Shown: in pieces, positions 8,306-46,024 of the stretch
Position numbering within the stretch: position 1 is the first letter of the stretch
Layout of the letters: each line of letters starts with the position of its first letter
Assembly: GCA_010093605.1 (NCBI GenBank)
Contig: MU004194.1
Coordinates: forward strand, 1,501,833-1,565,832
Reading direction: 5' to 3'
DNA: 64,000 bases
Source: Lophium mytilinum
Taxonomy: Eukaryota > Ascomycota > Dothideomycetes > Mytilinidiales > Mytilinidiaceae
Translations under genes and position numbers: made by a program
The notes under the pieces: generated by a model
Seen by the model: the letters and a program-made list of their open reading frames with translations, nothing else
Told to the model about the DNA's origin: nothing
The model's database searches: none

Positions 8306-9580
8306 CTACAGCTTCGCCGCCAGACTCTTCTGCTCCTTCGCTTGCTCAACCAACTTCCAGCATATCTCAGCCGCGGGTTTCATTTCCTCTCCGACCTTCT
8401 TCGCCTGTTCGCTACTCGCCTGGCGCACGGCATACCGCGCCGCAATACCTTGGAAAATGACGCTGTCTCGCCACATAGCAAAGGCAGTCCCCCAAGCAAT
8501 TTCGGGAGCGGGGTCCCAGCCAGCAACATCGCGATACCAAGAAATACATTGAGCGCGAGATGGAAGGCCTGCGGGATGATTGAAAGGGTGGAAGGCGGGA
8601 TGGGAGTTCCGGCGAGAGGTATCGAAGGCAGTGATTGTCCAGGGCACGATGAGATTCGAGAGATCAGAAAGCGGGTGACCAATAGTTGCCATCTCCCAGC
8701 TATCAGGGTCAGTATCGGACCTTTTCAAAAGAAGAGTAAGGGCACTGGCTTACTCTAATATCCCAATAACGCGAGGCTCTGTCCTGTGGTACACCAGGTT
8801 ATCAATTTTGTAGTCTCCGTGGATCGGGTTGCCTCGATCTTTCGGTTGGCTTTTGGGATCGCTGAAATACTGAACCAGTTCGTCGAAGCGTGGGACTTTG
8901 CCGACTGCCTGGCCTGTCTCGACATCCTTAGCAACGCTCTGGGCGTCTCCGAGTTGTGTGAAGGTGTTAATTTGGCGATTGTAGAAGCCAGTTGGCTTTC
9001 CGAAAGTCGAGAGACCAATTGAGGCCGGATTTAACCTGTGAAGCTTGGCCAATGTTCGTACTGCGTCGTGCCACCTGGGATACGCGTTAGTACCAGTCTC
9101 GCTTTGGCATTGGAAGTTGAGCAACCCTACATCTCATTCCTCTCCTCGGGCGAGACTCCAGGAAAGTGCGGCTCCGTCACAATCCTACCGTCCAAGAATT
9201 CCATGATGTAAAATGGTGTTCCGACCACCGAGTCGTCCTCGCATAGCCCATACGTCTTGGGTACTGGGACGTCCGTGTTCTGCAACGCGTTTATGATCCG
9301 ATACTCCCGCTCGACTTTGTGTGCACTCTTTGATACCAGCTTCCCCGGCGGCTTTTTGCGCATTACAAACTTGGATCCCCGCGCGTCGGTGATTTGGTAT
9401 GTGGGGTTGGACTGGCCAAAGCCGAACTGAAGTCATATTGTCAGCATTCAGGTGTCCGAGAAGGGATAATGGCATACGCACCTGCTTGAGAGTGATTGGA
9501 GTCTTGATGTCGGCGACATTCTTCTCAATGTACTTCTCCAGTGAGGAGATATCAATGGGCTGTCGAACTGGCCCCGCCAT
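8306..9580 (-). CDS. APH-family small-molecule kinase (ACAD10/11 kinase-domain type), peroxisomal
   Basis: Four exons (9482-9580, 9131-9426, 8754-9074, 8306-8699) joined by 55, 56 and 54-nt introns; the second has a consensus TACTAAC branch site. The product is 369 residues. It has the aminoglycoside-phosphotransferase fold: the Lys-bearing strand [23 protein letters not shown], the catalytic loop HGDYKIDN at 217-224 and the metal-binding Asp at 239 in ILDWE. All active-site residues look intact. In animals this kinase domain is fused to an acyl-CoA dehydrogenase in ACAD10/ACAD11, where it phosphorylates 4-hydroxyacyl-CoAs. Here a matching ACAD lies 4.5 kb away as a separate gene. The last three residues are AKL, a canonical PTS1, so a peroxisomal location is likely. 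The start at MAGPVRQ was preferred; an in-frame ATG 20 codons upstream is possible. Confidence 0.85.
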
Positions 9581-10129
9581 GATTCGCTCAGGAAACAATG
9601 TATGTAGTTGTGAAAGGTAGGGTGACACTGAGAGCTCCAAAGCTATGAAGGATGAATCTTTTGGTAGCCACCTGCTAAAGCGAGGTCAGGGACGCGCATG
9701 GCTGGACCCAGGCTCTGCAGCTCCGTTGTCTGTTGCTTTGGTCCCCTCGACTTGCTCACCTCGGCTTTTGGTGATTCAGTTCCCGCGACTGGCTAGGCAA
9801 TTCTGGGCTTAGTGTGGTGGTGTTTAAACAGACGTGGAGATGTCGTCGGGAGATCTTAACCGTTGCCATCAAAATCCTAGCCATCTGCCCATGCAGACTG
9901 TCCTAGAAGTATAATCAGCTCGCGAGTTACCGTGAGGCTTGATGCTGCATTGAAACAACGCCTCGCTGCGATTGATCTCTTTCGAGAACTAACACTTTTC
10001 ACGACCACTAAACTTCTGTTAAAGCAGCTTACAATCGCAGTTCTAGTCATCAGAGGCACTTCCCACAGTGCTGATATGATTCGCTAGCACTCAGTTCAGC
10101 CGAAGTGATTGAATCTTCGTTCGCGCCCT
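9581..10129. other. Intergenic
   Basis: Promoter region of the minus-strand kinase gene and upstream region of the HET gene. Nothing else recognised. The real 5' exon of the HET gene could reach into the right end. Confidence 0.5.
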
Positions 10130-12056
10130 ATGAGTCCCAATGTGCATCAATCGCCCTTTGCGTGCTCTGTTCCTATTTCTGGGAGGAAGGGAAAGGGAAA
10201 AAGAGAAATCCGATTCGCATTTCGCTTGCCAGCATCAAGCAACGCACAGCTACTATTCTTCTACATCGCGTGGCGCCTCGGGGTGATAAACCCATCGCAA
10301 AGGTCGTCATATCTATGGGTAAGTGTCTACTCAAAAATCGTCTGCTTTTTATGGACATGGATATGCTCAAACCTAAGCTACGTTCTTGGTATCGGAAAGA
10401 CAGACTTGTGAGCAACAACAAACATCGGCCTTACGCTTTTGCAAACAGGAGTTTGACGAATGCTCATCATCTCACACACATTGCTTACCTTATACTGGAG
10501 ATACAACTCTTTTACCAAAGAGAGTGATTGATGTCGGACGTGTGGATTCCCTTGATGAGCCTCATCTATTGGTCACTGAAGAAATGTATGGCGATTATCT
10601 TGCGCTGTCTCACTGCTGGGGCCAATTTCCGCAATTCACTACGACTTTGGAAACGCTCTTACAGAGAGTTCACAGCATTCCCATCGCCGAGCTGCCGAAA
10701 ACCTTCGCCGATGCAGTCTTAATTACACACTCCTTGGGATTTAGGTACTTGTGGATTGACTCACTTTGCATACTTCAAAATCTGGACAAAAAAGACTGGG
10801 GAGTGGAGGTTGGCAACATGTCCTCTATTTACCAAAATGCACGCATGACTATTGCCGCAACATCTGCAGCTGAAAGCCGCGAAGGCTGCTTTCCTTCCCG
10901 AATTGCGCCCTTTGCGAGCGATCGGACTGTATTGAAGATACGCATCGATAAATCGTCATGCGAACGAGTAACCTCGGAATGGTTCCCTCAATTCCTCGTG
11001 CGCTTTGCAACCGGAGGTGCACAAGCACTGTCTGCATATACGGATACCCCTCTCCGTCAAAGGGCTTGGGTGCTTCAGGAGATAATTCTTTCCCCACGCG
11101 TTCTATTCTTCGCACAAAATCTAGTTTACTGGATGTGTGCGGAGTGTGTTGCGTCCGAGGATGGGCTTTACAAAGACGAAGACTGCTCTTCAATCATCCA
11201 GCGCCCTCAGACTCTCAAATCTGAGCTTTATCAACGGGTAGAAGAATCGTCCTTGTTTCTCAACGGGACTCCTGCTTTGATTGCTCTCTGGTACGACTTC
11301 GTCGAGGACTACAGTTCCAGACATCTTACCCATAGTAGCGATAAGCTTGGGGCTATAGCAGGCATGACTCGTCATTTCCGGAACGAGATGTGCAATGAGA
11401 TGCCTGCTATGGGACTGTGGGAATCGGACCTACGCCATGGCATCCTTTGGCTTCCGAATACTCATCTGACTTCTAAGCGAATATTTGGTTTCCCTTCCTG
11501 GTCATGGCTGTCCTTTGATGGGCCGGTCTTGTTTTCTATCCGTAACTTCGTTTCCGATAGCAATGACGCAGAGTTCTTACCAGTGAGCATCGATTGGTCC
11601 GGAAAGGAGCTCACCTCAAACCTTCGACGAGCCAGCATCCAGATAAGAGCAAAAGTGGTTACCGTTACCTCTGTCGTAGTATGCAGGCAAGGTATTGAAG
11701 ATGCACAGCTATGGAGAAAACCAAACCGAGCAATCCATTCGTTCCAAAAGGTTGATGGTACACTATACGGCGAGGCTATTTTTGATAACGAGCCAGAGAC
11801 TATCAACGATACCTTCCCAGAGGTTTTTATCTCTGAACCTTTTGTCGGCACCCAAGATCTCACGTTGCTCAACATTTCGCAAGAACAGCGATTTTGGGGT
11901 AAAAAATCTCAGGATGAATGTAATAACTTTTTCATAGTTGTGCGGCAGGAAAGCGGCTTTTATCGCAGGATAGGGGTGGCGTTCGTTCGAACTCAACTCG
12001 TCACCAAACTCTCACCTATGGTGACCCTACCGAAAGTGCTAGTTGAGCTAGAGTGA
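10130..12056 (+). CDS. HET-domain (heterokaryon incompatibility) protein
   Basis: The long frame 10404-12056 encodes a clear HET domain: a CX-rich lead (FCKQEF..C..H.HC), LPKRVIDVG, YLALSHCWGQ, ALLITHSLGF-type helix, LWIDSLCILQ, MSSIYQNARMTIAAT and, further on, LRQRAWVLQEIILSPRVLFF. HET proteins trigger growth arrest or programmed cell death on non-self recognition. The first ATG in the long frame (10584) lies inside the domain, so the gene must begin upstream. A tentative 5' exon from ATG 10130 to TGG|GTAAGT at 10318 joins in frame to CAG|ACT at 10404 (85-nt intron); this 5' end is uncertain. No NACHT, ankyrin or WD repeats follow, so it is a short stand-alone type. It interrupts an otherwise metabolic neighbourhood and shows no functional link to it. 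Confidence 0.75.
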
Positions 12057-12498
12057 CAAGGGGGCATGAAATACGTGGCACTCGTATTCATTCTAGAAAG
12101 CCGCAACGGATGTGAGCGCGTGTATAGCACCACTGCTTGGGTTGCTTCAATGCATTTCCAGAAATCTAACGGGACAGAAACCGGCCACTTCGGACTATAT
12201 GAAAAGTCGTTGAGGCATCTCAAGCATTAGCAGACATGGGTCCTTGCCCTAAAATACAATGCAATAATTTCTTTCTAGGCTGTCTTCATCGAGTGCCTCA
12301 TCAGATCAAAGTACATCCCCTCTCAACCATCCTTCTCGCAGCTAGTCTCGAGTTCCTCTTCACTCATCTCGTAGATTCAAACCATCCCTCAACGTCACCA
12401 GCGCTTACACTCGCAACGGCCTCGCCCTCCCCATTCAGGCTCTTCAACAGGTTCCCCATCTACCAGTCCGAGAGATTGGAGTATATAGCCCCATAACA
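12057..12498. other. Intergenic
   Basis: 3' flank of the HET gene. It contains a perfect TTGAG-GCAT-CTCAA inverted repeat at 12210-12223 that matches the core of the repeats near 5.8-6.2 kb. The Ser/Thr/Pro-rich frame at 12236-12496 is not convincing. Confidence 0.5.
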
Positions 12499-12750
12499 CT
12501 AATCATCGTTAGGGTTAAACATCCAATCCGCACGATACGGCATATCCTTGATATTCCCACAAAGACACATCACAGTCTTCTTCCAGCAATCCGTGCTGCC
12601 CCCACAAGTCCCATCATCCTTCCCCGCACGCTTTAGATACGCCGCGTTGATCGGAATCACCTTCGTCAAATCGCACATGGGAAGGTTGAAGGCCGTAGAC
12701 AATTCCGCTGTGCCCTGGGCTTCCCCGTTCGCCTCGAGTCTCGACACCAT
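12499..12750 (-). CDS. Small hypothetical protein (83 residues)
   Basis: A compact frame starting at ATG 12750. The C-terminal half has five cysteines (C.L, GTCGGSTDCWKK, MCLCGN) and ends PYRADWMFNPNDD. The residue mix is protein-like rather than low-complexity, and the cysteine clustering suggests a small metal-binding or disulphide module. There is no signal peptide, so secretion is not indicated. I do not recognise a family. It could also be the last exon of a larger unrecognised gene, or a chance frame. Confidence 0.3.
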   Translation of the reverse strand: MVSRLEANGEAQGTAELSTAFNLPMCDLTKVIPINAAYLKRAGKDDGTCGGSTDCWKKTVMCLCGNIKDMPYRADWMFNPNDD

Positions 12751-13554
12751 ATCATCATCCGACAACTCCGACCTCTAAGCCTTTGTGACACTCTGTGTGC
12801 ATTTGCAATGAGGTTGACGCAAAATTAGGAAGTTATCTATGCAATTGCGCAATGTTCGATCACCATGCTTGAACTGCTTGGTGGAACTAACAACGCCATC
12901 CATGATGTGATTAATGAGAGGCGGAACTCAACGAAATGATAGAGAGTGTGCGCACACGAGTGAACGAGAGAGGGAGAGAGGGAGAGGGAGAGAGAGGTGT
13001 TGCTTTGACGTGGAGATGCAATGTCGTCTGGCATGACGAGATGAACACTAGGTCTGATGAGGAAAAACGACCCATCACGTGATCTGAACTACCATTTCAA
13101 CTATATATTTGGATCTGTCATTGTTGGCTGAAAAGATGAAAGCCCTTCACCTAAATATAATAACATGCCATAGAAATTCGTACCCTTCTAGTCCTCGTAG
13201 AGCTACATCAGGTTGCCACTGTCTGGTCTACTAGTACACCAAGATGCCGAAGTGGTCTTTTGTTTAGAGGGCCGAGAATACTCCAAAGCTCCTCATGTGG
13301 CGGTATACGAATACGAGTGTACGGAATTGTATGACGAGTTATTGTAGTTTTCACTCTCTGATTGTAGGGCTTAAAGGTTTTCAGGCGTTCACTCTGACGT
13401 GAGATCTTAGTGCCAGGATTTACCGCCAACTCATCACAAGTCGCTTGCATTGCACATTAGATATTCAGGGCGGAAGCGAACACTGCATATAAGATGGAGT
13501 AAAGGCATACCAGACCTCATGAATTCTTCCAACTATCCAGTTTCAAGCTTCAAC
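12751..13554. other. Intergenic
   Basis: Holds a GA-rich microsatellite (12964-12996), a TCACGTGA palindrome (13075-13082) and the promoter of the RidA-like gene, including a CATATAAGATG TATA-like stretch near 13487. No coding frame is supported. Confidence 0.5.
12964..12996. repeat. (GA)n/(GGGAGA)n microsatellite
   Basis: A purine-only run of GAGAGAGGGAGAGAGGGAGAG type, imperfect, in intergenic DNA. Confidence 0.8.
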
Positions 13555-13998
13555 ATGACCGTCAAAGCACAAGACCCTCCCTCCTTCAATAAGCAACACC
13601 CTCTCTATGCCTCCTTCACCTCCGTTCCTCTCTCGCCTACAGCTACACTCATCACTGTAGCTGGTCAGGTTGCCGAAGATCCAGAGACGGGCGAAACACC
13701 ATCCGACCTCTCCGCCCAGGTTGATCTCTGCCTGCGCCGCTTAAAGATCATCCTCGACCATGCGGGCGCCGGGAAGGCTGACATCACTCGCTTCATGTAC
13801 TACGTTGCCCAGGGCGGCGTGGATCAGGTAGAGGCTGCTAAAGGCAAGGGCGCCGCAATAAAGCTTGTAGGAGGCAAGGTTGGAGAGTGGCTCGAAGGAA
13901 ACCGACCTGCTAGCTGTTTTCTGAGAGTCTTTGGGATGAGTGATGAACGCTTCCTGTGCGAGTTTGAATGCATGGCTGTTGTAACAAAGGGCACCTAG
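13555..13998 (+). CDS. RidA/YjgF/UK114-family protein
   Basis: One exon, 147 residues from ATG 13555; an in-frame ATG at 13519 would add 12 residues with no family similarity. The Rid fold is seen in order: LITVAGQVAEDPETGE (the usual 'sGQ.p.d..g' strand), QVDLCLRRLKIILDHAGAGKADITRFMYYV (matching 'Q....l.Ni...L..aG....dvvk...yv') and the C-terminal PASCFLRVFGMSDERFLCEFE ending in the usual E(I/C)xA-type strand. Family members deaminate reactive imines/enamines or, in fungal and bacterial catabolic clusters, serve as hydrolases or dehydratases of small intermediates. The Arg that binds the carboxylate in true RidA (in R-x-x-V) is not in its usual context, so deaminase activity is uncertain. 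It sits between the kinase and ACAD genes, suggesting a role in the same route. Confidence 0.75.
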   Translation: MTVKAQDPPSFNKQHPLYASFTSVPLSPTATLITVAGQVAEDPETGETPSDLSAQVDLCLRRLKIILDHAGAGKADITRFMYYVAQGGVDQVEAAKGKGAAIKLVGGKVGEWLEGNRPASCFLRVFGMSDERFLCEFECMAVVTKGT

Positions 13999-14112
13999 GA
14001 CAGGAAAATGAAAGGGACTTTGAAAGAAGTAGTTGATGGACGCTATACAAATTCTAATGAACTATACATATAAGAAGACCCCTGATGTATATATGTTAAG
14101 ATATAGCGATGA

Positions 14113-15521
14113 CTATACAATTCCCCAGAACTCCTCTGGCTCCAACGCCCACTTCTTACATAGCTCCTTATACTTCTTCGTGTACTCCTCGAACCTCGTC
14201 CGGACACCCTGTGCCGTCTTCATTTGGTCCCTCCCGACTTGATGCCGATGCGCCGCGTCCGGTCCATCCGCGACACGCACAAATCGCGCATACGTCCAGA
14301 TCTCCGGCAGCGGCGTGTGTTGGGTAAGGCCCTGCCCACCATACATCTGCATCGCCTCGTCGATCACCTTCAGCAACGCATTCGGAACAAGGATCTTGCT
14401 CTGCGCAATCGCGTACTTGCCCGCCTTGTTACCGGCGTAGTCCATCGTGTCGGCAGCGTTCAGCACTACTAGTCGCATACTGTCAATCGTCATGCGCATG
14501 TCCGCGATACGCTCGATGTTGCTGTCGAATTGGCCGATGAGCTTCCCGCGCGGCTTCTTCCTGGGCTCGATGCACCGGACGAGCGCGAGCTCATAGGCGC
14601 GCTCGGCTTGCCCGATCAGCCGCATGCAGTGGTGGATGCGGCCGGGGCCGAGACGTCCTTGGGCGATTTCGAAGGCGCGGCCCGGGCCGAGGATGATGTT
14701 CTCCTTGGGTACGCGCACATTGTCGTAGATGTACTCGCCGTGGCCTTCAGGCGCACAGTCGAAGCCCATAATGGTCAGGTTCCGCACTTGCTTTAGGCCG
14801 GGTGTCCGTGCTGGGACGACGAGAGTCGTGTGGCGGTTCCAAGGGTTAGGGTTCTCGGGGTCGGAGCAGCCCATGAGGATGTAGATGTTTAGGTCTTCGT
14901 TGTACTGGCAGTTGGCGTAGAGCTTGCGGCCGTTGATGATGACTTCGGTGTCCGTGATCTTCATGCTGCAGGCGATGTTGGTTGCGTCGGAGGAGGCGAC
15001 ATCAGGCTCGGTCATGGAGTAGGCAGAGCTCATCTCGCCGTTCATGAGGGGTTCCAGCCACTTCTTCTTTTGCTCCGGGGAGCAGTATTTGGCTAGTAGC
15101 TCGATGTTTCCAGTCTCGGGGGCGTGGCAATTCATTGTCTGGATATTTCTTAGTACATGTTTCGAGGAACGATTGAGGGCGTAAGTACCTGCGGAGCCCA
15201 GTACACCTTTCCCATGATCTCAGCACAGCAAGAGTATTCGAGGTTGGTCAGACCAGGGCTCTCTTTGAAGTGGTTTGGCAGAAAAAGGTTGAAGAGACCC
15301 TGTGCCTTCGCCTTTTGCCTCAACTCGTGGATAATCGGTGGGTTCTTCCACCGGTTGTCTTTTATTTGCGCTTTGAAGATTCTCTCTGCGGGTATACATT
15401 CTGTCTCGACCCATTCGTAAACTTGCTTGATCTTCTCGATAGCAAAGGGTCGTAGCTTGGCCTTCACCCACGGGGGAGTGCGGGCAAAAGCTGGGTGGTC
15501 CATTAGCGATTCTGATGACAT
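14113..15521 (-). CDS. Acyl-CoA dehydrogenase, ACAD10/11 type
   Basis: Two exons (15189-15521, 14113-15138) separated by a 50-nt intron; 452 residues. The N-terminal helical domain (residues 1-110) is followed by MNCHAPETGNIELL, SMTEPDVASSDATNI (FAD/substrate-binding strand), the beta domain with LYANCQYNEDLNIYILMG, and GPGRIHHCMRLIG, which is strongly characteristic of the ACAD10/ACAD11 subgroup. MYGGQGLTQHTPLPEIW completes the C-terminal helical domain. In ACAD10/11 this domain acts with the APH kinase domain: the phosphorylated 4-hydroxyacyl-CoA loses phosphate at the flavin site to give an enoyl-CoA. The partner kinase is encoded at 8306-9580. No PTS1 is present (ends WGIV). It shares a 353-bp divergent promoter with the alpha/beta-hydrolase gene, supporting co-regulation. 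Confidence 0.9.
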
Positions 15522-15874
15522 GGTGATGTTGGGTAGGTTCAGGGAGGAGGATTGAAATTATGAGAAAGATGAGGCTTCACATAAAAAGACCTCAATTGCT
15601 TTTGATCACCACAGACGCGTGTTTTTCGGTCCATGGTTAGCTCGAATATGGAGTGATAGACCTGGGGCCGAGGTGGTTTGCGGGGAGAGCTTCAGGCGGC
15701 GCGGACGGAAGTCGTTAAGCGTTGGAGCTCCCCAGCCTTTCGTCCCCCACCGACGTTCGACCATCACCGGAACTGATGATTCATTGGTTGCTTGGTGTTG
15801 TAGAGGTTCCTTTATGTGCCAATCAGTCATAATGAAGGTAGCTTTCATGCTGCACCTACCTTTCTGTCGTGAAA
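15522..15874. promoter_or_regulatory. Shared divergent promoter of ACAD and hydrolase genes
   Basis: 353 bases separate the two start codons, which point away from each other. The region contains several CGG/CCG triplets (GGGCCGAGG near 15665, GGCGGCGCGGACGG near 15695, CACCGAC near 15749) of the kind bound by Zn2Cys6 factors, but no perfect spaced pair stands out. Co-regulation is an inference from the arrangement. Confidence 0.5.
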
Positions 15875-16999
15875 ATGGGAGACTTCGCAAAGCCCTGGAT
15901 TGAGGTAGGTACTTCCACAGCTAGCTTCTCAAGAGCTTCACACTGACTTTCTTCAAGTTTGAAAAAGAGTTCGGTCAACGTCCTATCCTTCATGGCCCCC
16001 TCCAGAACTGCCTCGATGGCTTTGCAGGCATTGGCGCCGCGCTGGTAGCCAAGTACGAATTCCCTCCGCCCGATGCATCTATCACGACGGAGGACAAGGT
16101 GACAGAGGAGGGGCTAGGAGTCCGTGTCTATACTCCGCCTGGATATGCTGGAGGCAAGCCTGTTGGAGTATACTTCCATGGCGGAGGGTGGGCAATGGGC
16201 GACATTGATGGGGACGACCCCTGGTGCCGGGCCATGTCGAAGATGGCTGGAGTGGTCCTCGTCTCCATCGAGTACGGCCTTGCTCCAGCAAACAAACATC
16301 CTGGCCTACTAGATGATTGCTTCAAAGGCTTCCAATGGACCCTGAAAAATGCGGCTTCATTGGGTGGCATTGAAGGCAAGATCTTTGTGGCTGGGATATC
16401 TGCGGGGGCAGGCCTTGCTTTGGGAACCGCTTTGAGAGCCATCGATGAAGGCTACGGTAGCTCTCTGGTTGGAGTGGTAGCTCAGGTGCCGGCAACCTGC
16501 CATCCCGATGCTGTTCCGGAAAATCTCCAGTCGAAATACACTTCGTACACAGAGCATGCTGAAGACACGATTGATTCGGATTCAGCTATGAGAGCATTTT
16601 GGGGTAGGCCATCACCAATGTCTTGTAGAGTAGATTCGGCGATACTAAATGTAACTCTAGGTGCATTCGGAGCGCCCCCTACTGATAAATACGCATCGCC
16701 GCTTTTACATGACAAGATCAAAGATTTGAACAAGGTGTATCTTACAGTCGCTGGACACGACACGCTTCGCGACGATGGCCTCCTCTTCCAGCAAGCACTT
16801 GATGAGAACAAGTGAGTCTTCTTATGCGAGCCATAACTCTATCGGGATATTCTAATACCCGTACAGAGTCCCTAATAAAATCGATTTCTTCGCGGGCTAC
16901 CCACACTACCACTGGACTTGGCCATCGAAACATCTCGATGAAGCAAGGGCGGAATACCTGGGAAAAGTGGCAAAGGGAATCGATTTTGTCATTTCATGA
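15875..16999 (+). CDS. HSL-type alpha/beta-hydrolase (esterase/lactonase-like)
   Basis: Four exons (15875-15904, 15958-16603, 16661-16811, 16867-16999), introns 53, 57 and 55 nt; the 57-nt intron contains no stop but is set by GTAGGC, a TACTAAA branch and CTCTAG. The 319-residue product has the oxyanion-hole motif HGGGW at 84-88, the nucleophile elbow GISAG with Ser158, Asp259 in GHDTLRDDG and His289 in GYPHYHW, so the catalytic triad is complete. This is the hormone-sensitive-lipase/AB-hydrolase-3 family, whose fungal members hydrolyse carboxylic esters and lactones. No signal peptide: the enzyme is intracellular. Given the BVMO in the same island, opening of the lactone or ester product is the likely job, but the substrate cannot be read from sequence. 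It is divergent from the ACAD and tandem with the ADH. Confidence 0.85.
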
Positions 17000-19263: not shown

Positions 19264-19958
19264 ATGGTCCACAAAAAGATTGATCACCAGTTCGCCTTCA
19301 AAGAGTTGGAATATGAGACGGAAGAGAACTATCAACGTGAGAAATCATTCCCAAGTTATAAAGGTCTGTACTGACTTCCACTAGCATGCATCAAGCTTTC
19401 CTTCTTCTTCAGCAAGCTGCCACACGTCTCTTATGAGCACTTTCACAAACACTACGCTCACGTACATGCCGATTTGACAGTAGCCTCAAAAGACTTCAAT
19501 GTTTGCAAGATCCAGAGATATGTACAGGTATTACCATCTTCCAGCATGGAACGTCACCAAATTCACCATTTTTCAGACACACCAAACGCCCGAGATGAAG
19601 GAAAAGGTCAAGTCATTGGGAATGGACCTGCTCGACTACGATGGATGCTCTCAGATATGGGTTAAGTCGTGGGACGATTGGGAGAAGTTTTTCACAAGTC
19701 CACAGTACGCTGCAGGCAAGTCATTCGCCAACAATCATCCAATAATACACAGTGTAACCCATCGCAGCTTTGGGCCCTGATTGTGCTAACTTTATGGACA
19801 CCTCGAACGGAATCAAGGTTATGGCCGGGTACGCTCGGCGAGAATCCTGGAGGATTGAAGCTATAACATCTGCTGACTCCCAACACAGGAACGATCTCAT
19901 TGTCTTCGGGAAAGCCATTCCTGACTGTGATGCGAAGGATGGACTCACTAGCACTTAA
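19264..19958 (+). CDS. EthD-domain protein with a GC-AG intron
   Basis: Five exons (19264-19336, 19385-19527, 19577-19715, 19768-19828, 19889-19958), introns 48, 49, 52 and 60 nt; 161 residues. The third intron starts GCAAGT, giving a GC-AG intron; the frame and the conserved C-terminus hold only with it. The EthD core is IKLSFFFSKLPHVSYEHFHK followed by HYAHVHADL, the usual start of this dimeric alpha/beta-barrel, then KIQRYVQ, and a C-terminal strand DLIVFGKAIP. EthD proteins act in ether degradation in Actinobacteria, and in fungi as small lyases, dehydratases or decarboxylases in polyketide or aromatic pathways. It lies in tandem with the ADH and MFS genes on the same strand. The first exon is the least certain part. 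Confidence 0.75.
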
Positions 19959-37547: not shown

Positions 37548-38506
37548 ATGTCTGATTTCAAGAACTTCAGTCGCATGTTCCGCCTGGATGGCAAGGTAGC
37601 TCTGGTTACTGGCGGTACGTTATGTCCCCGCTTCCCCAAGCTCCAGGGGTACGATACTGATTCGATATTGTGCAGGCTCAAGAGGGCTCGGTCTTCACGC
37701 TGCCACAGCCTTTCTCCTCGCCGGCGCAAAGACAGTAATTGTCTCTGCGCGGAAAGCAGAGGGCGAGCAAGGCATCAACCAAGCCGTGGAAAGGCTCAAC
37801 AAGCTCCCAGGCATCTCTGGAAAGGCCATTGGCATTGCCGCGAATGTGGCAGACACGGAGGACATCGCGAGGCTCGTGAAGGAGGTGCAGAAGTATGAGG
37901 ACAAGCTGGACATTCTGGTTGCGAACGCAGGCGCGACTTGGGGCGGTCCCTTCGATCCAACGCCGGACTGGTCGTCGCAGAAGGTGCTTGATCTCAATGT
38001 CCGGGGTGTGTTCAACCTGGCGCGACTGTGAGTGATGGTGTTTCTGGTGATGAATGAGTTTCATCTGACAGCATTCCAGCTTCGCGCCGATGCTTGAGAA
38101 GGCTGGCACTCGCACGGACCCCTCTCGAATCATCATCGTCAGTTCGACGGCAGGTGTAACAGTGCCTCACGTTGGAGACCATGGCACAATCATGTACTCG
38201 GTCTCCAAAGCTGCCGCACATCACTTGACGAGGCAATTGGCCATTGAGTTAGGCCCACGAAATATCACATCCAACACGGTTGGACCTGGCTTCTTCCCGT
38301 CGAAGCTCGCAAACGGCTTGATTGAAATTCTGGGCGGTGAGCAGCAGCTGAAAGATGACAATCCTCGCAAGAGGCTAGGAGAGCCGGAGGATATTGCGGG
38401 GGTTATGGTCTTCCTTTGCTCTCCCGCGGGAAACTACATCAATGGTGAGGATATTCATGTTGACGGTGGCATGCGGTTTGCGGCAGGACGGCAGACAAAA
38501 TTGTAA
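37548..38506 (+). CDS. Short-chain dehydrogenase/reductase
   Basis: Three exons (37548-37614, 37676-38027, 38080-38506), introns 61 and 52 nt; 281 residues. Classical SDR: TGGSRGLG cofactor loop at 21-28 created across the first junction, NAGATWGG, catalytic Ser in IIVSSTAGV, Tyr and Lys in YSVSKAAAH, and GPGFFPSKLANG. VIVSARKAEG after the second strand has Ser-Ala-Arg, which leans towards NADPH. The form resembles fungal RhlG-like 3-oxoacyl reductases. The C-terminal TKL is close to, but not, a canonical PTS1. It would reduce or oxidise a ketone/alcohol pair. It is divergent from the peroxisomal CoA ligase, so shared regulation and possibly a shared compartment are plausible. Confidence 0.88.
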
Positions 38507-39443: not shown

Positions 39444-40364
39444 CTACTTGGTCCCATGTATTCTCGCAGCCTGCGCCTCCATGCTCGTCTTCGCCATTAC
39501 CGACGCCATCTGGTCGTCGCAGAATGGCACTTGGTTCCTGAAGTAGTGGTTTTGCCCGTTGATCTCGACAATCAGACTGTACGCCTTCTCCGCCGGCAAC
39601 TTGACGCCAAATGCGTCCTCCAAAGCCCCGCCATCGACCAGCGCTGTCACCGAGCTGACGATAGTGGATATTGGGGTGAAGTATTCCTCTGGGAACGACT
39701 TCCATTCCTCGCCAGTCATAAGACCCGTCCTGACTGTTCCAGGACAGATGGCGTATGTCCGCACTCCGTCGTTTGCGTGGTAGGAGTAGGCGATGGAACG
39801 AATAAAATGGATCACGCCAGCCTTGGCTGCAGAGTACATGGGGCTGTAATATTTCTTGTCAGCTGGATACACCAAAAGTTTGAGAGTCTGGAAGTCTTAC
39901 CAGAACTCAGATGGGTACAGGCCACCACAACTCGCCGTCGCTATTAGGACGCCATCTTTTCCCTTGTGTGGACTCTTCCGGAAGAAATGTAGTGCTAGGT
40001 AGCTCGTATTGACCACCGACTTCAAATTGATGTCAATACTCAGCTGGTTTGGTTCGGGGGGTATCGCGAGATCCGACTTTGCGTAGAAGTCATCCCGTTC
40101 CACAATGCCAGCGTTCGCGAACACAAAGTCGATAGAGCCCGAGATCTTGAAGGCAGCCTCAAAGGTAGAAGCAAGCGAAGAGTAGGAGGTTACGTTGGTC
40201 TTGTGGAAATGGGCGTTGGGGAGGTCGGCCGCCGCTTTCGCTCCAGCTTCAGCATTGAGGTCGACGAGATGTAGCGTCCAGTTTCCACGCTTTGCTAGAG
40301 CTTGGGCGACTGCGAGGCCCATTCCACTCGCTCCACCGGTGATCAACGCGACTTTGTTTGTCAT
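39444..40364 (-). CDS. Short-chain dehydrogenase/reductase, 15-PGDH-like
   Basis: Two exons (39901-40364, 39444-39843) and a 57-nt intron; 287 residues. TGGASGMG at 9-16 is the cofactor loop; LVDLN places an Asp at the end of strand 2, favouring NAD(H). FANAGI is the NAG motif, TASCGG carries the catalytic Ser, and YSAAKAG supplies Tyr and Lys. ICPGTVRTGLM and the long C-terminal substrate loop resemble fungal relatives of 15-hydroxyprostaglandin dehydrogenase. Preference for NAD suggests oxidation of a secondary alcohol to a ketone, complementary to the other SDR. The C-terminus HGTK has no PTS1. It shares a 737-bp divergent promoter region with the aldehyde dehydrogenase. Confidence 0.88.
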
Positions 40365-41101
40365 TTTGGCTGTCTAGTAGATGTAGGATGGGTTGAAGAC
40401 CTGTGTATAAGCTGTTTGTTAATGTGAAGGTTGAGATTTAGTCCGGGGGCAGGAATTGACAGTCAGGCATCGTGAGCCCTATAATCTCACACCTCACAAT
40501 GCTGGAAGTGGGTAGCAGAACGGGTTCCAGCACACCCCGCGGGTGCCGTGCCGTCGCTCCCGTCTGGGGGTCCTGCAGAGGGGTGGTGGCTGGTGGGGAA
40601 GAGGAAGCTTGCTGCTGAAAGGGGCAAAGATCGAATCTGATGCCGCCAAGCTCCCGCCCCTCTTTTCCCTCACCCACTTCGCGCCCAAGGCGTCCCAGCT
40701 AACTGCTGCCGGGTGACGTCCGGCGCAGGGCGGAAAACAAAGTGCGCGCGGCCGAAGAAGATGAGAGGCGCGCAGCTGTGGCTCTGCATCTGCTCACGCT
40801 CCGAGTCGTAGCAATGCCCCGCCAGCAGAGGTCTGGCCCGGGGTTAGAGAATGGAGATAGGCACGCGCTTTTGTGTAAGAAGCACACATGTACTCTGTAG
40901 ATGCCCCGCTGTGAGCTTATTAGCCGTCTCTTAACTCTCAAATCGTTTGCTCTTGCTTCCGCTCCCTCTCCTTCATCTCCAAAACAACCACCTATAAACA
41001 GCTCGAAGGCCTCATAGCCTTCCCTTTCCTAGCTCTCTACCCCCAACCTTTCAGTTCGCCTACCACAGCTCTCAAATCCACATACCACGAAATCTGCAAG
41101 C
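40365..41101. promoter_or_regulatory. Divergent promoter region of SDR and ALDH genes
   Basis: 737 bases. GC-rich blocks such as GGGTGCCGTGCCG and GGGTGACGTCCGGCG (40711-40727, containing a TGACGTC CRE-like core) and CTCCGAGTCG at 40800 lie here. Near the ALDH start the sequence is pyrimidine-rich, usual for highly expressed fungal genes. The frames in it are not supported. Confidence 0.5.
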
Positions 41102-42684
41102 ATGGCCTTCTCCTGGAACGAGAAGAACCTCCCCAAGCAGCTCTTCATCAACAACGAATTCGTCGATTCAAAGAACAGCAAGAAGCTCTCCCTCTACAAC
41201 CCCAAAGATGGCTCCCTGATCGCCGATGACGTCGCTCTAGCCGGCGAGGAGGATGTCGATCTTGCCGTAGCAGCCGCAGAGAAGGCGGCCAAGGGCTGGA
41301 AGAAGCTGGCTCCCACCGAGCGCCGAAACATCATGGCGAAGTTCGCCGATCTAATCGAGAAGCACGGCAAAGACATTGCGGGATTGAGCCGTATTTCTCT
41401 GGGTGCGCCGTACGGCGCTTTCGGTGCCTTTGAGGTTGGACTTTGTGCTGAGGTATGATATCCATGTTTGCTCTGTGAGAGCGATGTAGCACTAGCTGAC
41501 ATGCGTATGACAGGCTTTCCGATACAACGCAGGCTGGATAGACAAGTTCGGCGGCGAGTCCTGGCCACAGGAGGACGGCTTCCTTAAGATCGTACGCAAC
41601 GAGCCTCTAGGCGTCACCGCTGGCATCGTCCCCTGGAATGGCCCCGTGGGCACCATCGGTCTGAAAGCCGCTCCCGCGCTCGCCACTGGAAACGTCTTCA
41701 TCCTCAAGCCATCCGAGAAGACGCCTTTCTCCTCAACCGCTCTGGGCACTCTCATCAAAGAAGCCGGTTTCCCACCAGGCGTCTTCCAGATCCTCACTGG
41801 CGACGGCAGCACGGGCGCCCTCATCGCCAGCCACATGCGCATCCGCAAGGTCTCCTTCACCGGCAGCATCTCCACGGGCAAGAAGATCCAGGAAATGGCG
41901 GCGAAGTCGAACCTCAAGCGCGTCACCCTCGAACTCGGCGGCAAGTCGCCCGCCGTGGTCTTCGACGACGCCAATCTCGAAAACGCGGTTACGTGGTGCG
42001 CCAATGCTATCACGGCGAACACCGGCCAGGTTTGCTTCGCCGCCAGCCGTGTCTATGTCCAGGAGGGTATCTACGAGAAGTTCATCGCTGGATACAAGGC
42101 TGCAATGGAAGCGAAAGCTAAGGAGGTCGGTGACCCAGAGGCCGAGGGCACGAACATCGGACCCTTGGTCGACAAGGCGCAGTTCGAGCGCGTCACTGGA
42201 TACATTGAGCGCGGCCAGAAGGGACAGGGCACGCTGTTAGTCGGTGGAAAGCGGATCGGCACGAGCGTAAGCACTCAAATCTCTCCACTGGTATAGAATC
42301 AGCAGCTAACACCCTTTTTAGGGCTTCTACCTCGAGCCGACCGTCTTCACAGACGTTGACATCAAGTCCGAGATCCACACCGAAGAAATCTTCGGCCCCG
42401 TCTCGGTCGTCAGGTCGTTCAAGACCGAGGAGGAGATCATGGAGCTCTCCAACAACACCAACTTCGGCCTCATGGCTGGCGTCTTCACCCAGGACATCAA
42501 CAAGGCGCTGCGCGTAGCCTCTGACTTCGAGTCCGGCATGGTCGGTGTCAACTGCGTCAGCATGATGTTTATGAGCACGCCGTTCGGTGGAGTCAAGGAG
42601 AGCGGTGTTGGGCGTGAGTGCGGCATCCACGCCCTACGGGCTTTCACGGAGACGAAGACGATTATGGTCAACATGAACTACTAA
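41102..42684 (+). CDS. Aldehyde dehydrogenase (NAD(P)+)
   Basis: Three exons (41102-41452, 41514-42266, 42322-42684), introns 61 and 55 nt; 488 residues. Cofactor-binding GIVPWNGPVG and FILKPSEKTP; SFTGSISTGKKI; general-base Glu257 in VTLELGGKSP; nucleophile Cys291 in NTGQVCFAASR; EEIFGPVSVV and PFGGVKESGVGRE close the fold. All catalytic residues are intact. The family oxidises a wide range of aldehydes to carboxylic acids. In the island it would supply a carboxylic acid for the CoA ligase, for example from a primary alcohol oxidised by the ADH. The stretch LSRISLGAPYGAFGAFEVG before the first intron is a variant of the usual substrate-loop sequence. No signal or targeting sequence is seen. 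Confidence 0.93.
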
Positions 42685-42925: not shown

Positions 42926-43765
42926 CTACTCCACCTCCCCCGCCGCAAAACTCAACTCCCACCCCCCAACCTCCGCCCCCTTCATCGCCTGCTGCGCCGT
43001 CGCAAACGCATCCCGCGAGAACTCCTCGTCGCTGAAATCATGCAGCGCTAGATACCCCGCCGGCTTCTTCTCTTCTGCGCCGCCGGACGGCGCTTTCTCC
43101 TCTCGTCCCCACACGAAGTTTAGCTTGTAGAGGCGCGTCCGCGAGGGCACGAGGCCGTGGAGGGCGCACTCGATGGCGAGGCGCTCGGTGGAGGTGGCGG
43201 TGGAGTCGAAAAGGACGGTTGCGAGGTAGGGGGAGTGTCCGGCTGGAAAGGAAAGAGTTAGTTTGGCGTAGGTGTGGTGGAGGGTGGTTGGGTAATGGGA
43301 GTAATGGGAGTAATGGGAGTAATGGGAGTAATGGGAGTAATGGGAGTAATGGGAGTAATCGAAACGCAACCCACCCTTCCGCTCCTCCTTACTCCACTCC
43401 CCCAGCGTCTCAAACCCCCTCGTATCAAAATCCGCGACCTTGAAACTGCTCCCATCCCCCTCTACCCCATTCTCATCCGGCACCCTCAGCAGGTCGCTCG
43501 CAAAGGGGATGTCGGAGAGGAATTCTTGCGAGGACAGGAACTCGAGCTCGCAGGGGTACAGCGCGAGATATGTCTTCGGCGCGGTTTCGGGGGAGAGGGC
43601 GGTGTAGCGAGTCGCGGAGCGGATGCCGGAGGTTTTGATGATGTCGGGGACGTGGACGGTGTTGTACCAGGTCGTGAAGCGGGAGGCGGGGAGGTTGGGG
43701 TTGGAGATGCGCGAGGCGACGTAGAAGATGCCCGGGGTGTGGGTGGTGGGCGGTGAGGTGGTCAT
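42926..43765 (-). CDS. EthD-like/dimeric alpha-beta-barrel protein with SHY repeat
   Basis: One exon, 279 residues. The N-terminal FYVASRISNPNLPASRFTTW followed by YNTVHVPDI matches the first strand-helix of EthD-type barrels (HxPD stands in for the usual HxxL). TRYTALSPE and YLALYPCEL continue the fold. A second similar unit seems to lie at about 180-275 (KLTLSFPAGH..; YLALHDFSDEEFS). Between them is a run of seven exact SHY triplets from the 9-base minisatellite at 43292-43359, which expands a hydrophilic loop without breaking frame. Function unknown; fungal members lie near polyketide and aromatic-degradation genes. It is one of two EthD-type genes in this island. A one-exon structure contrasts with its neighbours. 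Confidence 0.6.
   Translation of the reverse strand: MTTSPPTTHTPGIFYVASRISNPNLPASRFTTWYNTVHVPDIIKTSGIRSATRYTALSPETAPKTYLALYPCELEFLSSQEFLSDIPFASDLLRVPDENGVEGDGSSFKVADFDTRGFETLGEWSKEERKGGLRFDYSHYSHYSHYSHYSHYSHYSHYPTTLHHTYAKLTLSFPAGHSPYLATVLFDSTATSTERLAIECALHGLVPSRTRLYKLNFVWGREEKAPSGGAEEKKPAGYLALHDFSDEEFSRDAFATAQQAMKGAEVGGWELSFAAGEVE
43292..43359. repeat. Coding minisatellite (GTAATGGGA)7
   Basis: Seven perfect 9-base units plus a partial unit on the plus strand. Read on the minus strand each unit encodes Ser-His-Tyr. Perfect conservation of the units points to recent slippage. Confidence 0.95.
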
Positions 43766-44795
43766 GGTGGGTGAGTGAGGCTATTGGGATGCCGATCACG
43801 ATTCAATGCGGGAGAATGGCTGTTGTGGTAGGGTTGGATTGGAGTGTAGTGGAAAGGGTGCAGTACGTCATGGACAACATAAAGCAGCAAGGTGTTGACT
43901 TTTTTCTGGAAGGAAGCTCCAAACGGTGCTGTTCCCCCCACAGCGGAGGTTTGGAGCTCTCGGAGTTTGGCCCATTCATCGAGGCTACTCGTATTCGTTC
44001 TACCTGCACTTCTAAGGCTAGCAATTCTCGCCAGTATTGCCATTTCTGTCCTCAATCGCACTCGAACCCTTCCAGGGTCTCCTCCGGGTCCGGCAGTCAT
44101 GCTTCCCGTTCTTTTCTTTCCTTCATTCGAGTCAAGATTGTGGCTACGAGTCGCCATATCGCAGCTTCTGCTTCATCATGACTCTCGTACATGAAGTCGT
44201 CCAGGGTCGACTGCAGAAGTGCGGATAAAGTTACGCAGATGTGCCCCTCCATGCACTGTCGATCCATGATTCATATATCCCCGCTCCCCACTAGAAGCAT
44301 GACTCGAGAACTTGGACGGCGACAGGGGTGGAGCTTCGTCGGAGCGACTGTGCCTAAACTTTACCCTCAGTCTCTCAACGCCACCCTCAGCTCAGGGATT
44401 GATGCCTATCTTACCGATGGAGAGTCTCGTGATGAGCATGGGCATGGTTCCTTCACTTTATTCTAGCCTAGCGCGTATGTGAGATTCGGGAGCGGGCAGA
44501 GTGGCATGGGGTAATGCGGGGGAGGGGCAAGATGGGTTAGGTTCTGTCTTCCTTGAATGAAGCTGTGCTCGCAAGAACCATACGAGTCAAACTGGATGGT
44601 AGAGTGTCCTTGCATCTCAATTGAGTTGCTGTAGATATCGTTTCTCCCTTGCTCATCTGTCCCGGAATCAAGTGACAGTCGACACTCCCTTGGGTCACAC
44701 CTCAGAAGCAGACAGGGCAAACAAGCAGCAAACAAAACTTTCATCCTCTCATCACTGATCTTCAGTCCCCGAAACCCCCGTTATCGACTTCAGAG
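43766..44795. other. Intergenic, divergent promoter region
   Basis: 1.03 kb between the EthD-like gene and the PRISE gene, which point away from each other. A CTCTCGGAG block at 43956 contains the CTCGGA half-site seen upstream of the ADH. Short overlapping frames on both strands have no family similarity. Confidence 0.5.
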
Positions 44796-46024
44796 ATGGC
44801 AGGAGGAAAATCCGCCCTCATCTTCGGCGCCTCGGGCGTGACAGGGTGGGCCTTCGTGAACGAGATACTCAACGACTACCCCAAAAAGGGCGTCTGGACG
44901 AAAGTGCACGCCTTGACAAACCGACCGCTCTCCCTCGAAGACTCCAGATGGTCGAAAGACTCCAGGCTGAACATAGTTAGCGGCATCGACCTACTCCAGG
45001 GAAGCCAGGAGGAGTTAGAAGTGGCGATGAAGGAGAAGATTGAGGGGATCGAAGACGTTACACACGTGTACTACCTAGCATACAAGGCGAATAAGGACAT
45101 GCAGCAGGAGCTCGAGGACGCGGTGGATATGTTCAAGAGGAGCACGATAGCGGTAGATCACTTGACCAGTAAGCTCGAGTTTGTGGTATTGCAGACTGGA
45201 GCGAAGATGTGTAAGCTACTCGGAATCCCGTCTCGCAACGAAATACTAACATGTTACTTGAAGATGGCTGCCACCTCCTCTCCGCCCATCCCACGGACTA
45301 CTTGCACGTTCCCCTGGCCGAATCCAGCCCCCGCCTCAAACCTCCCTACCACGACGCCCTCTTCTACCACCCCCAGCTTGACTGGGTGACCGCTTACGCC
45401 AAAGACAAGAGCTGGAACTGGTGCGACACCCGCCCGGACATCATCATCGGCTTCGTGCCCAACCAGAACTTCTACTCCCTCGGAACGGTCCTCGGGATCT
45501 ACCTCTCGCTATACCGCGCAGTAGAAGGCGAGGGCGCGGACTGTCCTTTCCCCGGCACAGACGCCAGCTGGGTCGCAAAGAGCAATGATTCCAGCTCCGA
45601 TATGATTGCACGGCAGACGCTGTATCTCTCGCTCAATCTACCAAAGAAGAACAAAGGAGAAGGGTACAACGTCGCAGACGCCAAGACCCCCGAAACATGG
45701 AGCTCCAAATGGCCACAGCTCTGCGCCTACTTCGGGCTCAAGGGGACTGCACCTACCTCCAAGTCACCCGAGGTCCGACAGTATATCAAGGACCATATGA
45801 AGCAGTGGACCGAGCTAGAGTCGAAGCATGGGCTGCAGGAGGGCCACGCAGATTCGCAGAAGACTTTCCAGGGGTTCGAGTATTTCTTGCTCACCCAGTT
45901 CGATTTTGATAGGCAGTATGATATGACCAAGACGTATGGGACGGGCTTTGAGGAGGAGAGGAGCGTGATGGGGGCGTGGGGACCGGTGTTTGACAGGATG
46001 AGGGAGGCGAAGATTATACCGTGA
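44796..46024 (+). CDS. PRISE-type (progesterone 5-beta-reductase/iridoid-synthase-like) enone reductase
   Basis: Two exons (44796-45210, 45264-46024) and a 53-nt intron; 391 residues. The N-terminal Rossmann motif is GASGVTGWAF. VTHVYYLAYKAN is the usual strand before the second motif, and the exon junction creates QTGAKMYGCHL, diagnostic for this family (TGxKxYG with the catalytic Tyr/Lys region). PNQNFYSLGT is a further family mark. Length and order fit fungal PRISE-like SDRs. These enzymes reduce 1,4-enones to ketones with NADPH. In the proposed order this enzyme would saturate a cyclic enone before the BVMO acts. The C-terminus KIIP is set by a TGA after CCG; a downstream exon is not needed for the family length. 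Confidence 0.85.

What the first reader, a model, noticed from the sequence alone, without database searches (positions are those of the whole stretch)
8306..46024. A ~38-kb catabolic island: enone reductase, BVMO, lactone-type hydrolase, CoA ligase, kinase and ACAD
Sixteen neighbouring genes include every enzyme class for a coherent route: PRISE reductase (enone to ketone), BVMO with exact FxGxxxHxxxW fingerprint (ketone to lactone/ester), HSL hydrolase with intact triad (ring opening), ADH/SDR/ALDH (alcohol and aldehyde oxidation), AKL-tailed CoA ligase, and an APH kinase plus ACAD10/11-type dehydrogenase for hydroxyacyl-CoA. Two MFS pumps and a central Zn2Cys6 regulator are present. The order resembles the bacterial carvone/limonene logic (reductase, BVMO, lactone hydrolase, CoA entry), but I know of no described fungal cluster with this set. 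The enzyme families are seen in sequence; the joint pathway is inference.
Basis: partly seen in the sequence, partly recalled or inferred. Interest (0 to 1): 0.88.

Follow-up and report, generated by a model that had tools for sequence, protein, structure and literature searches.

The report
Conserved fungal ketone-to-hydroxyacid catabolic gene cluster
A neighbourhood of fungal genes, parts of which are kept together in distantly related moulds, looks like a chemical disassembly line that cuts ketone-containing molecules into hydroxy acids and feeds them into fat-burning; its natural fuel is not yet known.

Summary
The window is Lophium mytilinum (Dothideomycetes): the BVMO and ACAD models are 100% identical to its deposited proteins. 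The enzyme classes claimed were confirmed by Pfam/PDB searches: PRISE, type I BVMO, HSL hydrolase, Zn-ADH, two SDRs, ALDH, CoA ligase, APH kinase, ACAD, plus two MFS pumps and a Zn2Cys6 regulator. The main new result is synteny, testable for three genes: in other Pezizomycotina BVMO and ACAD share a contig in 24 of 35 species (about 1 expected), BVMO and PRISE in 18 of 31 (about 0.8). Where locus tags are comparable the genes are mostly within ten of each other, and in Halenospora a ligase fragment and the BVMO are annotated as one protein in the window's order. ACAD and kinase are of the ACAD10/11 (LvaC/LvaA-like) type, which removes a 4-hydroxyl through 4-phosphoacyl-CoA. Kinase and ligase end in AKL (peroxisomal). 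Best reading: enone/ketone to ester or lactone to hydroxy acid to CoA ester to phospho-elimination to beta-oxidation. The substrate is open: Ophiostoma piceae has BVMO and ACAD on one contig yet did not grow on monoterpenes, which weakens the carvone/limonene idea. No shared promoter motif was found.

The parts
8306..9580 (-). APH-type kinase (356 aa model, C-terminal AKL), like the kinase domain of ACAD11
   Evidence: PF01636 4.6e-32; PDB 3dxp 1.2e-62 and ACAD11 8v3v 1.6e-45; HGDYKIDN motif; an exon border near residue 130 may be slightly wrong (gap against 3dxp)
10377..12778 (+). HET-domain protein lying between kinase and ACAD, probably not part of the pathway
   Evidence: PF06985 5.4e-30 on ORF 10377-12056; gene model
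13295..13943 (+). RidA/YjgF-like small protein (Ribonuc_L-PSP)
   Evidence: PF01042 4e-08; role unknown
14113..15521 (-). ACAD10/11-type acyl-CoA dehydrogenase, 452 aa
   Evidence: 100% to P0121 Lophium mytilinum; ACAD11 2wbi 1.4e-92 against 1.4e-28 for medium-chain ACAD; GRLGPGRIHHCMR and ADGPD
15522..15874 (.). 353-bp divergent intergenic region ACAD / HSL
   Evidence: gene models
15875..16999 (+). HSL-family alpha/beta hydrolase, 319 aa (HGGG, GISAG, D, H present)
   Evidence: PF07859 4e-38 on the main ORF; PDB 6k34 3.8e-30; model
17834..18949 (+). Zn-dependent alcohol dehydrogenase, 336 aa
   Evidence: PF00107 5.1e-25 on the main exon; NCBIfam AdhP-like, under cut-off
19264..20080 (+). EthD-domain protein (borders approximate)
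   Evidence: PF07110 5.2e-18
20201..22830 (+). TRI12-type MFS transporter 1 (start approximate)
   Evidence: PF06609 1.1e-41
23567..26017 (+). TRI12-type MFS transporter 2
   Evidence: PF06609 4.9e-15 on the last exon
28109..31119 (-). Zn2Cys6 / Fungal_trans regulator (inner exon borders approximate)
   Evidence: PF04082 1.2e-14; start Met at 31119 and intact CASCRDRRIRCVVPPGDSECTQCKRSGVEC across a 52-bp intron; PF00172 itself was not scored
32279..34186 (-). type I Baeyer-Villiger monooxygenase, 592 aa, 3 exons
   Evidence: 100% to P0001 Lophium mytilinum; PF00743 4.3e-17; cyclohexanone monooxygenase 5m0z 7.1e-56
35283..37187 (-). 4CL-like AMP-binding CoA ligase, 554 aa, C-terminal AKL
   Evidence: PF00501 5.2e-73, PF13193 2.8e-13; a fragment is fused to the BVMO in Halenospora P0063
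37188..37547 (.). 360-bp divergent intergenic region ligase / SDR1
   Evidence: gene models
37548..38506 (+). SDR (adh_short_C2), 281 aa, ends TKL
   Evidence: PF13561 1.6e-48
39444..40614 (-). SDR (adh_short), about 287 aa; 5' exon approximate
   Evidence: PF00106 2.2e-36
41102..42684 (+). aldehyde dehydrogenase, 488 aa
   Evidence: PF00171 2.4e-157; nearest NCBIfam betaine-aldehyde dehydrogenase, under cut-off
42926..43765 (-). orphan ORF, 279 aa, with a 9-bp repeat encoding a SHY-type run
   Evidence: no Pfam (E up to 0.001) or NCBIfam (E up to 1e-5) match; fold not predictable (pLDDT 32)
44796..46024 (+). PRISE-type enone reductase, 391 aa, two exons around a 53-bp intron near 45211-45263

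Best explanation
A conserved Pezizomycotina catabolic gene cluster. Proposed flow: PRISE reduces an enone to a saturated ketone (an SDR or the ADH can also make the ketone from an alcohol). The BVMO inserts oxygen to give a lactone or ester. The HSL hydrolase opens it to a hydroxy acid (or alcohol plus acid), and ADH/SDR plus ALDH carry primary alcohols on to carboxylates. The CoA ligase and the ACAD10/11-type pair then act, probably in the peroxisome: the acid is bound to CoA, shortened by beta-oxidation if needed to a 4-hydroxyacyl-CoA, phosphorylated by the APH kinase, and turned by the ACAD into an enoyl-CoA that general beta-oxidation finishes. Shown here: gene content, family membership, key residues, AKL tails, and conserved linkage of BVMO, ACAD and PRISE, plus ligase-BVMO adjacency in one other species. 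Inferred: that the enzymes act in one pathway, the order of steps, the compartment split and the substrate. A ring-substituted cyclohexenone/cyclohexanone would fit best, because its lactone gives a 6-hydroxy acid and one round of beta-oxidation then gives the 4-hydroxy form.
For: Linkage: BVMO-ACAD same contig in 24 of 35 species listed in both searches (1.03 expected), BVMO-PRISE 18 of 31 (0.83), ACAD-PRISE 12 of 21 (0.74) (from; the 24 include Lophium itself). Locus tags with the same prefix, read by eye from those listings: BVMO-ACAD within 10 genes in 7 of 8 species, BVMO-PRISE within 7 in 5 of 8, ACAD-PRISE within 6 in 4 of 7. Halenospora P0063 is a ligase fragment (72% identical) joined to a whole BVMO (70%) in the same order. 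ACAD10/11 subtype by score and by residues that PMC12440821 names for phosphate binding and catalysis (passages); kinase domain match. AKL on kinase and ligase; 31 of 120 listed ACADs but 0 of 120 BVMOs and 0 of 120 PRISEs end in a PTS1-like tripeptide. In the same genome a PF07859 hydrolase lies within 2 kb of two other BVMO-like loci of 36 (0.17 expected) and within 20 kb of 7 of 36, this cluster included (1.28 expected). Two Pseudomaricurvus loci have an ACAD with the exact ACAD10/11 signature beside a BVMO, an HSL hydrolase and SDRs; another bacterial locus has BVMO-ADH-ACAD-APH without the exact signature.
Against: No expression or metabolite data. Only 3 of 10 enzyme genes could be tested for linkage in other fungi, plus the ligase in one species. 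In 11 of 35 species BVMO and ACAD are on different contigs, in 13 of 31 BVMO and PRISE, in 9 of 21 ACAD and PRISE (some are fragmented drafts or different strains, others not); Verruconis ACAD is 69 tags from the BVMO. In the four Sordariomycetes listed for both BVMO and PRISE (Niveomyces, Ophiostoma, Sodiomyces, Thelonectria; class recalled) the two are on different contigs, so PRISE may be optional. No shared promoter motif. A HET gene separates kinase and ACAD. The Lophium ACAD itself has no PTS1 (ends GIV). Other ACAD- and APH-like loci of the same genome lie on different contigs from each other, so the two do not always travel together. Bacterial BVMO relatives kept are only 29-34% identical, and just 2 of 80 loci, of one genus, carry the exact ACAD signature. 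The mirror-tree correlation (r 0.70) also follows from shared species history.
Confidence: 0.58

Rival explanations
1. Monoterpenoid (carvone/limonene-like, conifer resin) catabolism specifically: enone reductase, BVMO, lactone hydrolase and CoA entry as in Rhodococcus.
For: The enzyme order fits; Lophium lives on conifers (recalled); Grosmannia clavigera has a terpene-responsive cluster of 30 genes (PMC3680317, passages) and two of its BVMOs are linked to limonene detoxification (PMC8120277, passages).
Against: The linked pair occurs in fungi of several classes with many habitats (recalled). O. piceae has BVMO and ACAD on one contig but did not grow on monoterpenes as sole carbon. The primary G. 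clavigera papers were not held, so its BVMOs could not be compared. No P450 was found in the region by the Pfam scans made.
Confidence: 0.2
2. Lipid-derived substrate: oxylipins, 4-hydroxyalkenals, gamma/delta-lactones or hydroxy fatty acids. PRISE and ALDH handle enones and aldehydes, the hydrolase opens lactones, and ligase, kinase and ACAD process 4-hydroxy acids as mammalian ACAD10/11 do; the BVMO handles keto-lipids.
For: ACAD10/11 with their kinase domains act on 4-hydroxy fatty acids in mammals (PMC11342911, PMC12440821, passages); such substrates are common to many niches, which matches the wide spread.
Against: BVMO and PRISE are not needed for ready-made 4-hydroxy acids; the BVMO's nearest solved relative is a cyclohexanone monooxygenase, although sequence distance does not fix the substrate.
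Confidence: 0.2
3. A biosynthetic or tailoring cluster: the enzymes make or detoxify a secondary metabolite.
For: BVMOs and PRISE-like SDRs occur in fungal biosynthetic clusters (recalled; some relatives are named stcW or sirQ); two efflux-type TRI12 pumps and a Zn2Cys6 regulator are present.
Against: No PKS, NRPS, terpene synthase or other backbone gene was found in the ORFs and models scanned; an ACAD10/11 with its kinase and ligase, two of them with AKL tails, points to degradation; wide conservation is unlike many secondary metabolite clusters (recalled).
Confidence: 0.1
4. Loose neighbourhood: only BVMO, ligase, ACAD and PRISE (perhaps with the kinase) form a unit, and the rest are common redox and transport genes lying nearby.
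For: SDR, ADH, ALDH and MFS families are large (recalled); linkage in other fungi was tested for few genes; HET, RidA-like and orphan genes show that the island is not pure; in other fungi the tags leave room for fewer genes between the ends.
Against: Divergent pairs share short intergenic regions (ACAD/HSL 353 bp, ligase/SDR1 360 bp); the linked genes ACAD and PRISE lie on either side of the others here.
Confidence: 0.25

Closest known systems
Bacterial cyclohexanone cluster (chnABCDE, recalled)
   Same: SDR/ADH, BVMO, lactone hydrolase, alcohol dehydrogenase and aldehyde dehydrogenase
   Different: Has no PRISE, CoA ligase, kinase or ACAD10/11 (recalled); no chn sequence was compared here
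Pseudomonas putida levulinate operon (lva) and mammalian ACAD10/11
   Same: APH kinase plus ACAD turning 4-hydroxyacyl-CoA into enoyl-CoA through 4-phosphoacyl-CoA (PMC11342911, PMC12440821, passages); a CoA ligase (LvaE) in the operon
   Different: Separate genes here as in bacteria, not fused as in mammals; BVMO, hydrolase and PRISE are added
Grosmannia clavigera terpene-responsive cluster
   Same: Fungal and catabolic; two BVMOs of this fungus are tied to limonene (PMC8120277, passages)
   Different: 30 genes, of which five had homologues in O. piceae, dispersed (PMC3680317, passages); gene content not available to me, so identity with this cluster is untested, and whether the two BVMOs lie in that cluster was not seen
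Mycobacterial mymA operon (Rv3083-Rv3089)
   Same: Operon range and last gene, a CoA ligase (PMC2793005, passages); MymA is a BVMO (abstract in the listing); HSL-type LipR, SDR and Zn-ADH (recalled)
   Different: Linked to cell-envelope remodelling; no ACAD10/11, kinase or PRISE (recalled); no sequence compared
Rhodococcus carvone/limonene route (recalled)
   Same: Enone reduction, BVMO, lactone hydrolase, CoA activation
   Different: Not compared by sequence; PRISE not known there (recalled)

Membership tests
ACAD10/11-LvaC type dehydrogenase | Phosphate-binding R, H, R on one helix and catalytic Asp instead of Glu | tested here: met
   GRLGPGRIHHCMR and ADGPD, aligned with ACAD11 2wbi; residues as given in PMC12440821 (passages)
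ACAD10/11-LvaA type kinase | APH fold with HGDxxxxN catalytic loop, close to the ACAD11 kinase domain | tested here: met
   HGDYKIDN; 3dxp 1.2e-62, 8v3v 1.6e-45
ACAD10/11-LvaA/LvaC pair | Acts on 4-hydroxyacyl-CoA | not testable with these tools
   needs an assay
Type I BVMO | FxGxxxHxxxW fingerprint and GxGxxG | tested here: met
   FKGGLMHSAAWD, GAGASG; CHMO/PAMO matches
Type I BVMO | Oxidises ketones | not testable with these tools
   needs an assay
PRISE enone reductase | Pfam PF22917 over full length with catalytic Lys and Tyr | tested here: met
   5.4e-159; LQTGAKMY and FYHPQLD in the corrected model, aligned with 5mlh through P0241; motifs in 109 and 112 of 120 listed relatives
HSL hydrolase | HGGG, GxSxG and Asp/His of the triad | tested here: met
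   read in the model; PF07859
Carvone/limonene catabolic cluster | Acts on monoterpenoids | tested here: inconclusive
   O. piceae argument against; no direct test
Fungal metabolic gene cluster | Linkage kept across species | tested here: met
   for BVMO, ACAD and PRISE and ligase in one species; other genes not tested
Fungal metabolic gene cluster | Co-regulation | tested here: inconclusive
   regulator present; no enriched shared promoter word
Bacterial chn cluster homologue | Common descent of the cluster | not tested
   no chn sequence was compared; bacterial BVMO relatives kept are 29-34% identical and a few loci have a partly similar gene set

The most novel reading that the evidence does not exclude
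An undescribed, ancient fungal degradation pathway in which Baeyer-Villiger ring or chain cleavage in the cytosol is coupled to a peroxisomal kinase-ACAD pair that strips the resulting hydroxyl: a eukaryotic 'BVMO to 4-phosphoacyl-CoA' route kept in one cluster from Candelariomycetes to Sordariomycetes.
Probability: 0.4. Interest if true: 0.78.

Novelty: new variant of a known kind. Interest (0 to 1): 0.62.

Why it matters
BVMOs are numerous in fungi but few have a known native role (recalled), and fungal partners of ACAD10/11 chemistry are not mentioned in the two ACAD10/11 papers searched (the word start 'fung' occurs 0 times in each main text). A cluster that ties them together makes both testable: one deletion set and a few carbon sources could reveal the native substrate of a widespread fungal BVMO family and a new entry into beta-oxidation.

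Tried and rejected
Shared regulator motif: CGG/CCG dyads and 7-9-mers in 10 cluster intergenic regions against 61 predicted promoters from elsewhere in the genome; nothing beyond multiple testing. Full paralogous cluster in the same genome: C10:669-689 kb holds a BVMO-like gene, a hydrolase and a ligase, and C3:366-374 kb a BVMO, with a hydrolase hit beside it; the other cluster proteins gave no match in these three stretches at E 1e-4. Recent transfer from bacteria: the 80 bacterial relatives kept are only 29-34% identical. Structure models: orphan ORF pLDDT 32 and BVMO pLDDT 60; judged too poor, so no fold search was made. First gene-finder settings gave absurd introns and were replaced. Literature: ten searches; none of the papers listed is, by title and abstract start, about this cluster. 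They cover only the held open-licence papers, and of the papers opened I saw passages only, except one section of PMC3680317 in full.

'Same contig' means same species name and same longest-contig length; rows standing for several members may carry another member's contig, and some species compare different strains. Genome size was set at 40 Mb for the chance value. Tag spacings were read by eye; JGI 'DRAFT' numbers were left out as not positional (recalled). The far ones are Verruconis (BVMO-ACAD 69, ACAD-PRISE 63), Oleoguttula, Rachicladosporium and Pycnora (BVMO-PRISE), Pycnora and Sporothrix thermara (ACAD-PRISE). BVMO-like and hydrolase loci were grouped by hand.
Full report
What is there. 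The window is position 1,501,833-1,565,832 of contig 14 of a 43-Mb fungal genome. Spliced models of the BVMO (592 aa) and the ACAD (452 aa) are 100% identical to Lophium mytilinum proteins on a 1.77-Mb contig, so the organism is Lophium mytilinum, Mytilinidiales, Dothideomycetes. Between 8306 and 46024 I find 17 genes: APH kinase, HET protein, RidA-like protein, ACAD, HSL hydrolase, Zn-ADH, EthD protein, two TRI12 MFS pumps, Zn2Cys6 regulator, BVMO, CoA ligase, two SDRs, ALDH, an orphan ORF and PRISE. The next gene to the right is a G-alpha-like protein and is outside.

Family checks. The ACAD scores 1.4e-92 against ACAD11 (2wbi) and 1.4e-28 against medium-chain ACAD; its single better match (4hr3, 4.7e-100) is an unnamed ACAD with the same helix. 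It carries the R/H/R helix (GRLGPGRIHHCMR) and the ADGPD aspartate that PMC12440821 names for 4-phosphoacyl-CoA (passages). The kinase matches 3dxp and the kinase half of ACAD11 (8v3v, 1.6e-45) with HGDxxxxN. Together they are the two halves of an ACAD11, as in the bacterial LvaA/LvaC pair (PMC11342911, passages). The BVMO has the exact fingerprint, and its best solved relatives include cyclohexanone and phenylacetone monooxygenases. PRISE fits PF22917 over its length; the corrected 391-aa model has LQTGAKMY and FYHPQLD, whose Lys and Tyr align with progesterone 5-beta-reductase through the 88%-identical Mytilinidion protein.

Is it a real cluster? The protein searches list species, contig length and often locus tags, which allows a synteny test without the genomes. 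Among species listed in both searches, BVMO and ACAD share a contig in 24 of 35 (1.03 expected), BVMO and PRISE in 18 of 31 (0.83), ACAD and PRISE in 12 of 21 (0.74); all three share one in Microthyrium, Verruconis, Tothia, Polytolypa, Lecanosticta and Saxophila. Tags show the scale: Polytolypa AJ80_01931 (BVMO), 01938 (PRISE), 01941 (ACAD); Saxophila LTR77_005751, 005757, 005758; Fusarium decemcellulare g11943 and g11940, with a 7.4-kb contig given for both; Exophiala aquamarina A1O9_06926 and 06924. Counted over comparable tags: BVMO-ACAD within 10 genes in 7 of 8, BVMO-PRISE within 7 in 5 of 8, ACAD-PRISE within 6 in 4 of 7. Exceptions: 11 of 35, 13 of 31 and 9 of 21 are on different contigs; Verruconis ACAD is 69 tags from its BVMO; Oleoguttula, Rachicladosporium and Pycnora PRISE are far from their BVMO. 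Halenospora varia P0063 is annotated as one protein made of a ligase fragment (72% to this ligase, residues 335-537) followed by a whole BVMO (70%): same neighbours, same order and direction as here. The seven species looked up span Dothideomycetes, Eurotiomycetes, Sordariomycetes, Leotiomycetes and Candelariomycetes.

Other support. Kinase and ligase end in AKL. Of 120 listed ACADs 31 end in a PTS1-like tripeptide, among the 24 linked ones 6, all of them Aspergillus, Penicillium, Exophiala or Fonsecaea; BVMOs and PRISEs 0 of 120 each. This suggests a cytosolic front and a peroxisomal back. In the same genome two other BVMO-like loci sit within 2 kb of a hydrolase of this family (0.17 expected), and 7 of 36, this cluster included, within 20 kb (1.28 expected). 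Among 80 bacterial loci with BVMO relatives, tblastn found SDR1-like genes in 23, SDR2-like in 10, ligase-like in 10, ADH-like in 7, ALDH-like in 7, ACAD-like in 6, APH-like in 3 and HSL-like in 2; no random-locus control was run. Pseudomaricurvus alkylphenolicus (L050) and P. alcaniphilus (L102) have an ACAD of the exact ACAD10/11 signature, an HSL hydrolase and SDRs beside the BVMO; L070 has BVMO, ADH, ACAD and APH but neither the exact ACAD helix nor the HGDxxxxN loop by pattern. This is only a hint.

How it probably works. Enone reduction (PRISE), Baeyer-Villiger oxidation, hydrolysis, oxidation of primary alcohols, CoA ligation, then kinase and ACAD. A substituted cyclohexanone gives a 6-hydroxy acid, and one round of beta-oxidation gives the 4-hydroxyacyl-CoA, the kind for which ACAD10 is specific (5- and 6-hydroxyhexanoate gave no phospho-product, PMC11342911). 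This explains why ligase, kinase and ACAD go with a BVMO, but it is chemistry reasoning, not data. Enoyl-CoA hydratase and thiolase were not seen in the Pfam scans of the region and would come from general metabolism.

Substrate. The carvone/limonene reading is possible but not favoured: the pair is spread over fungi of several classes, and O. piceae has BVMO and ACAD on one contig but did not grow on a monoterpene mixture (PMC3680317). Lipid-derived ketones, lactones and 4-hydroxy acids fit the wide spread better, cyclic ketones fit the BVMO and PRISE better. The closest described fungal system is the G. clavigera terpene cluster; its primary papers were not held, so identity with this cluster is open.

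Negative results. No shared promoter word or CGG dyad stands out. A HET gene lies between kinase and ACAD. Other ACAD-like (C2, C17) and APH-like (C5) loci of the same genome are on different contigs. Linkage of kinase, hydrolase, ADH, SDRs and ALDH outside Lophium is untested. Mirror-tree r = 0.70 in 22 species (0 of 5000 permutations as high) adds little, because species history alone can give such values.

Verdict. A new variant of a known kind: a fungal catabolic cluster whose combination of BVMO with ACAD10/11 chemistry I did not find described in ten searches of the held papers.

Noticed in passing
window 10377-12778 (+): A HET-domain (heterokaryon incompatibility) gene sits between the kinase and the ACAD of the cluster, possibly a later insertion.
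   Followed up: partly
window 43292-43359: Perfect 9-bp minisatellite (7.6 copies, 100% matches) inside the orphan ORF, encoding a Ser-His-Tyr-type run.
   Followed up: no
window 50101-51901: Tandem repeats encoding lysine/alanine/proline-rich and acidic stretches in a long ORF at 48701-52465, which also holds a run of X in translation.
   Followed up: no
G000 C10:672-692 kb: Second group in the same genome with a hydrolase, a ligase-like gene and two BVMO-like loci; may be another ketone catabolic cluster.
   Followed up: partly
L050 and L102: Pseudomaricurvus loci with ACAD10/11-type ACAD, BVMO, HSL hydrolase, SDRs (and in L050 an ALDH): a possible bacterial counterpart.
   Followed up: partly
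window 46228-47663 (+): G-alpha-like protein directly right of the island (PF00503 7.5e-59); its model has a long extra N-terminus that may be wrong.
   Followed up: no
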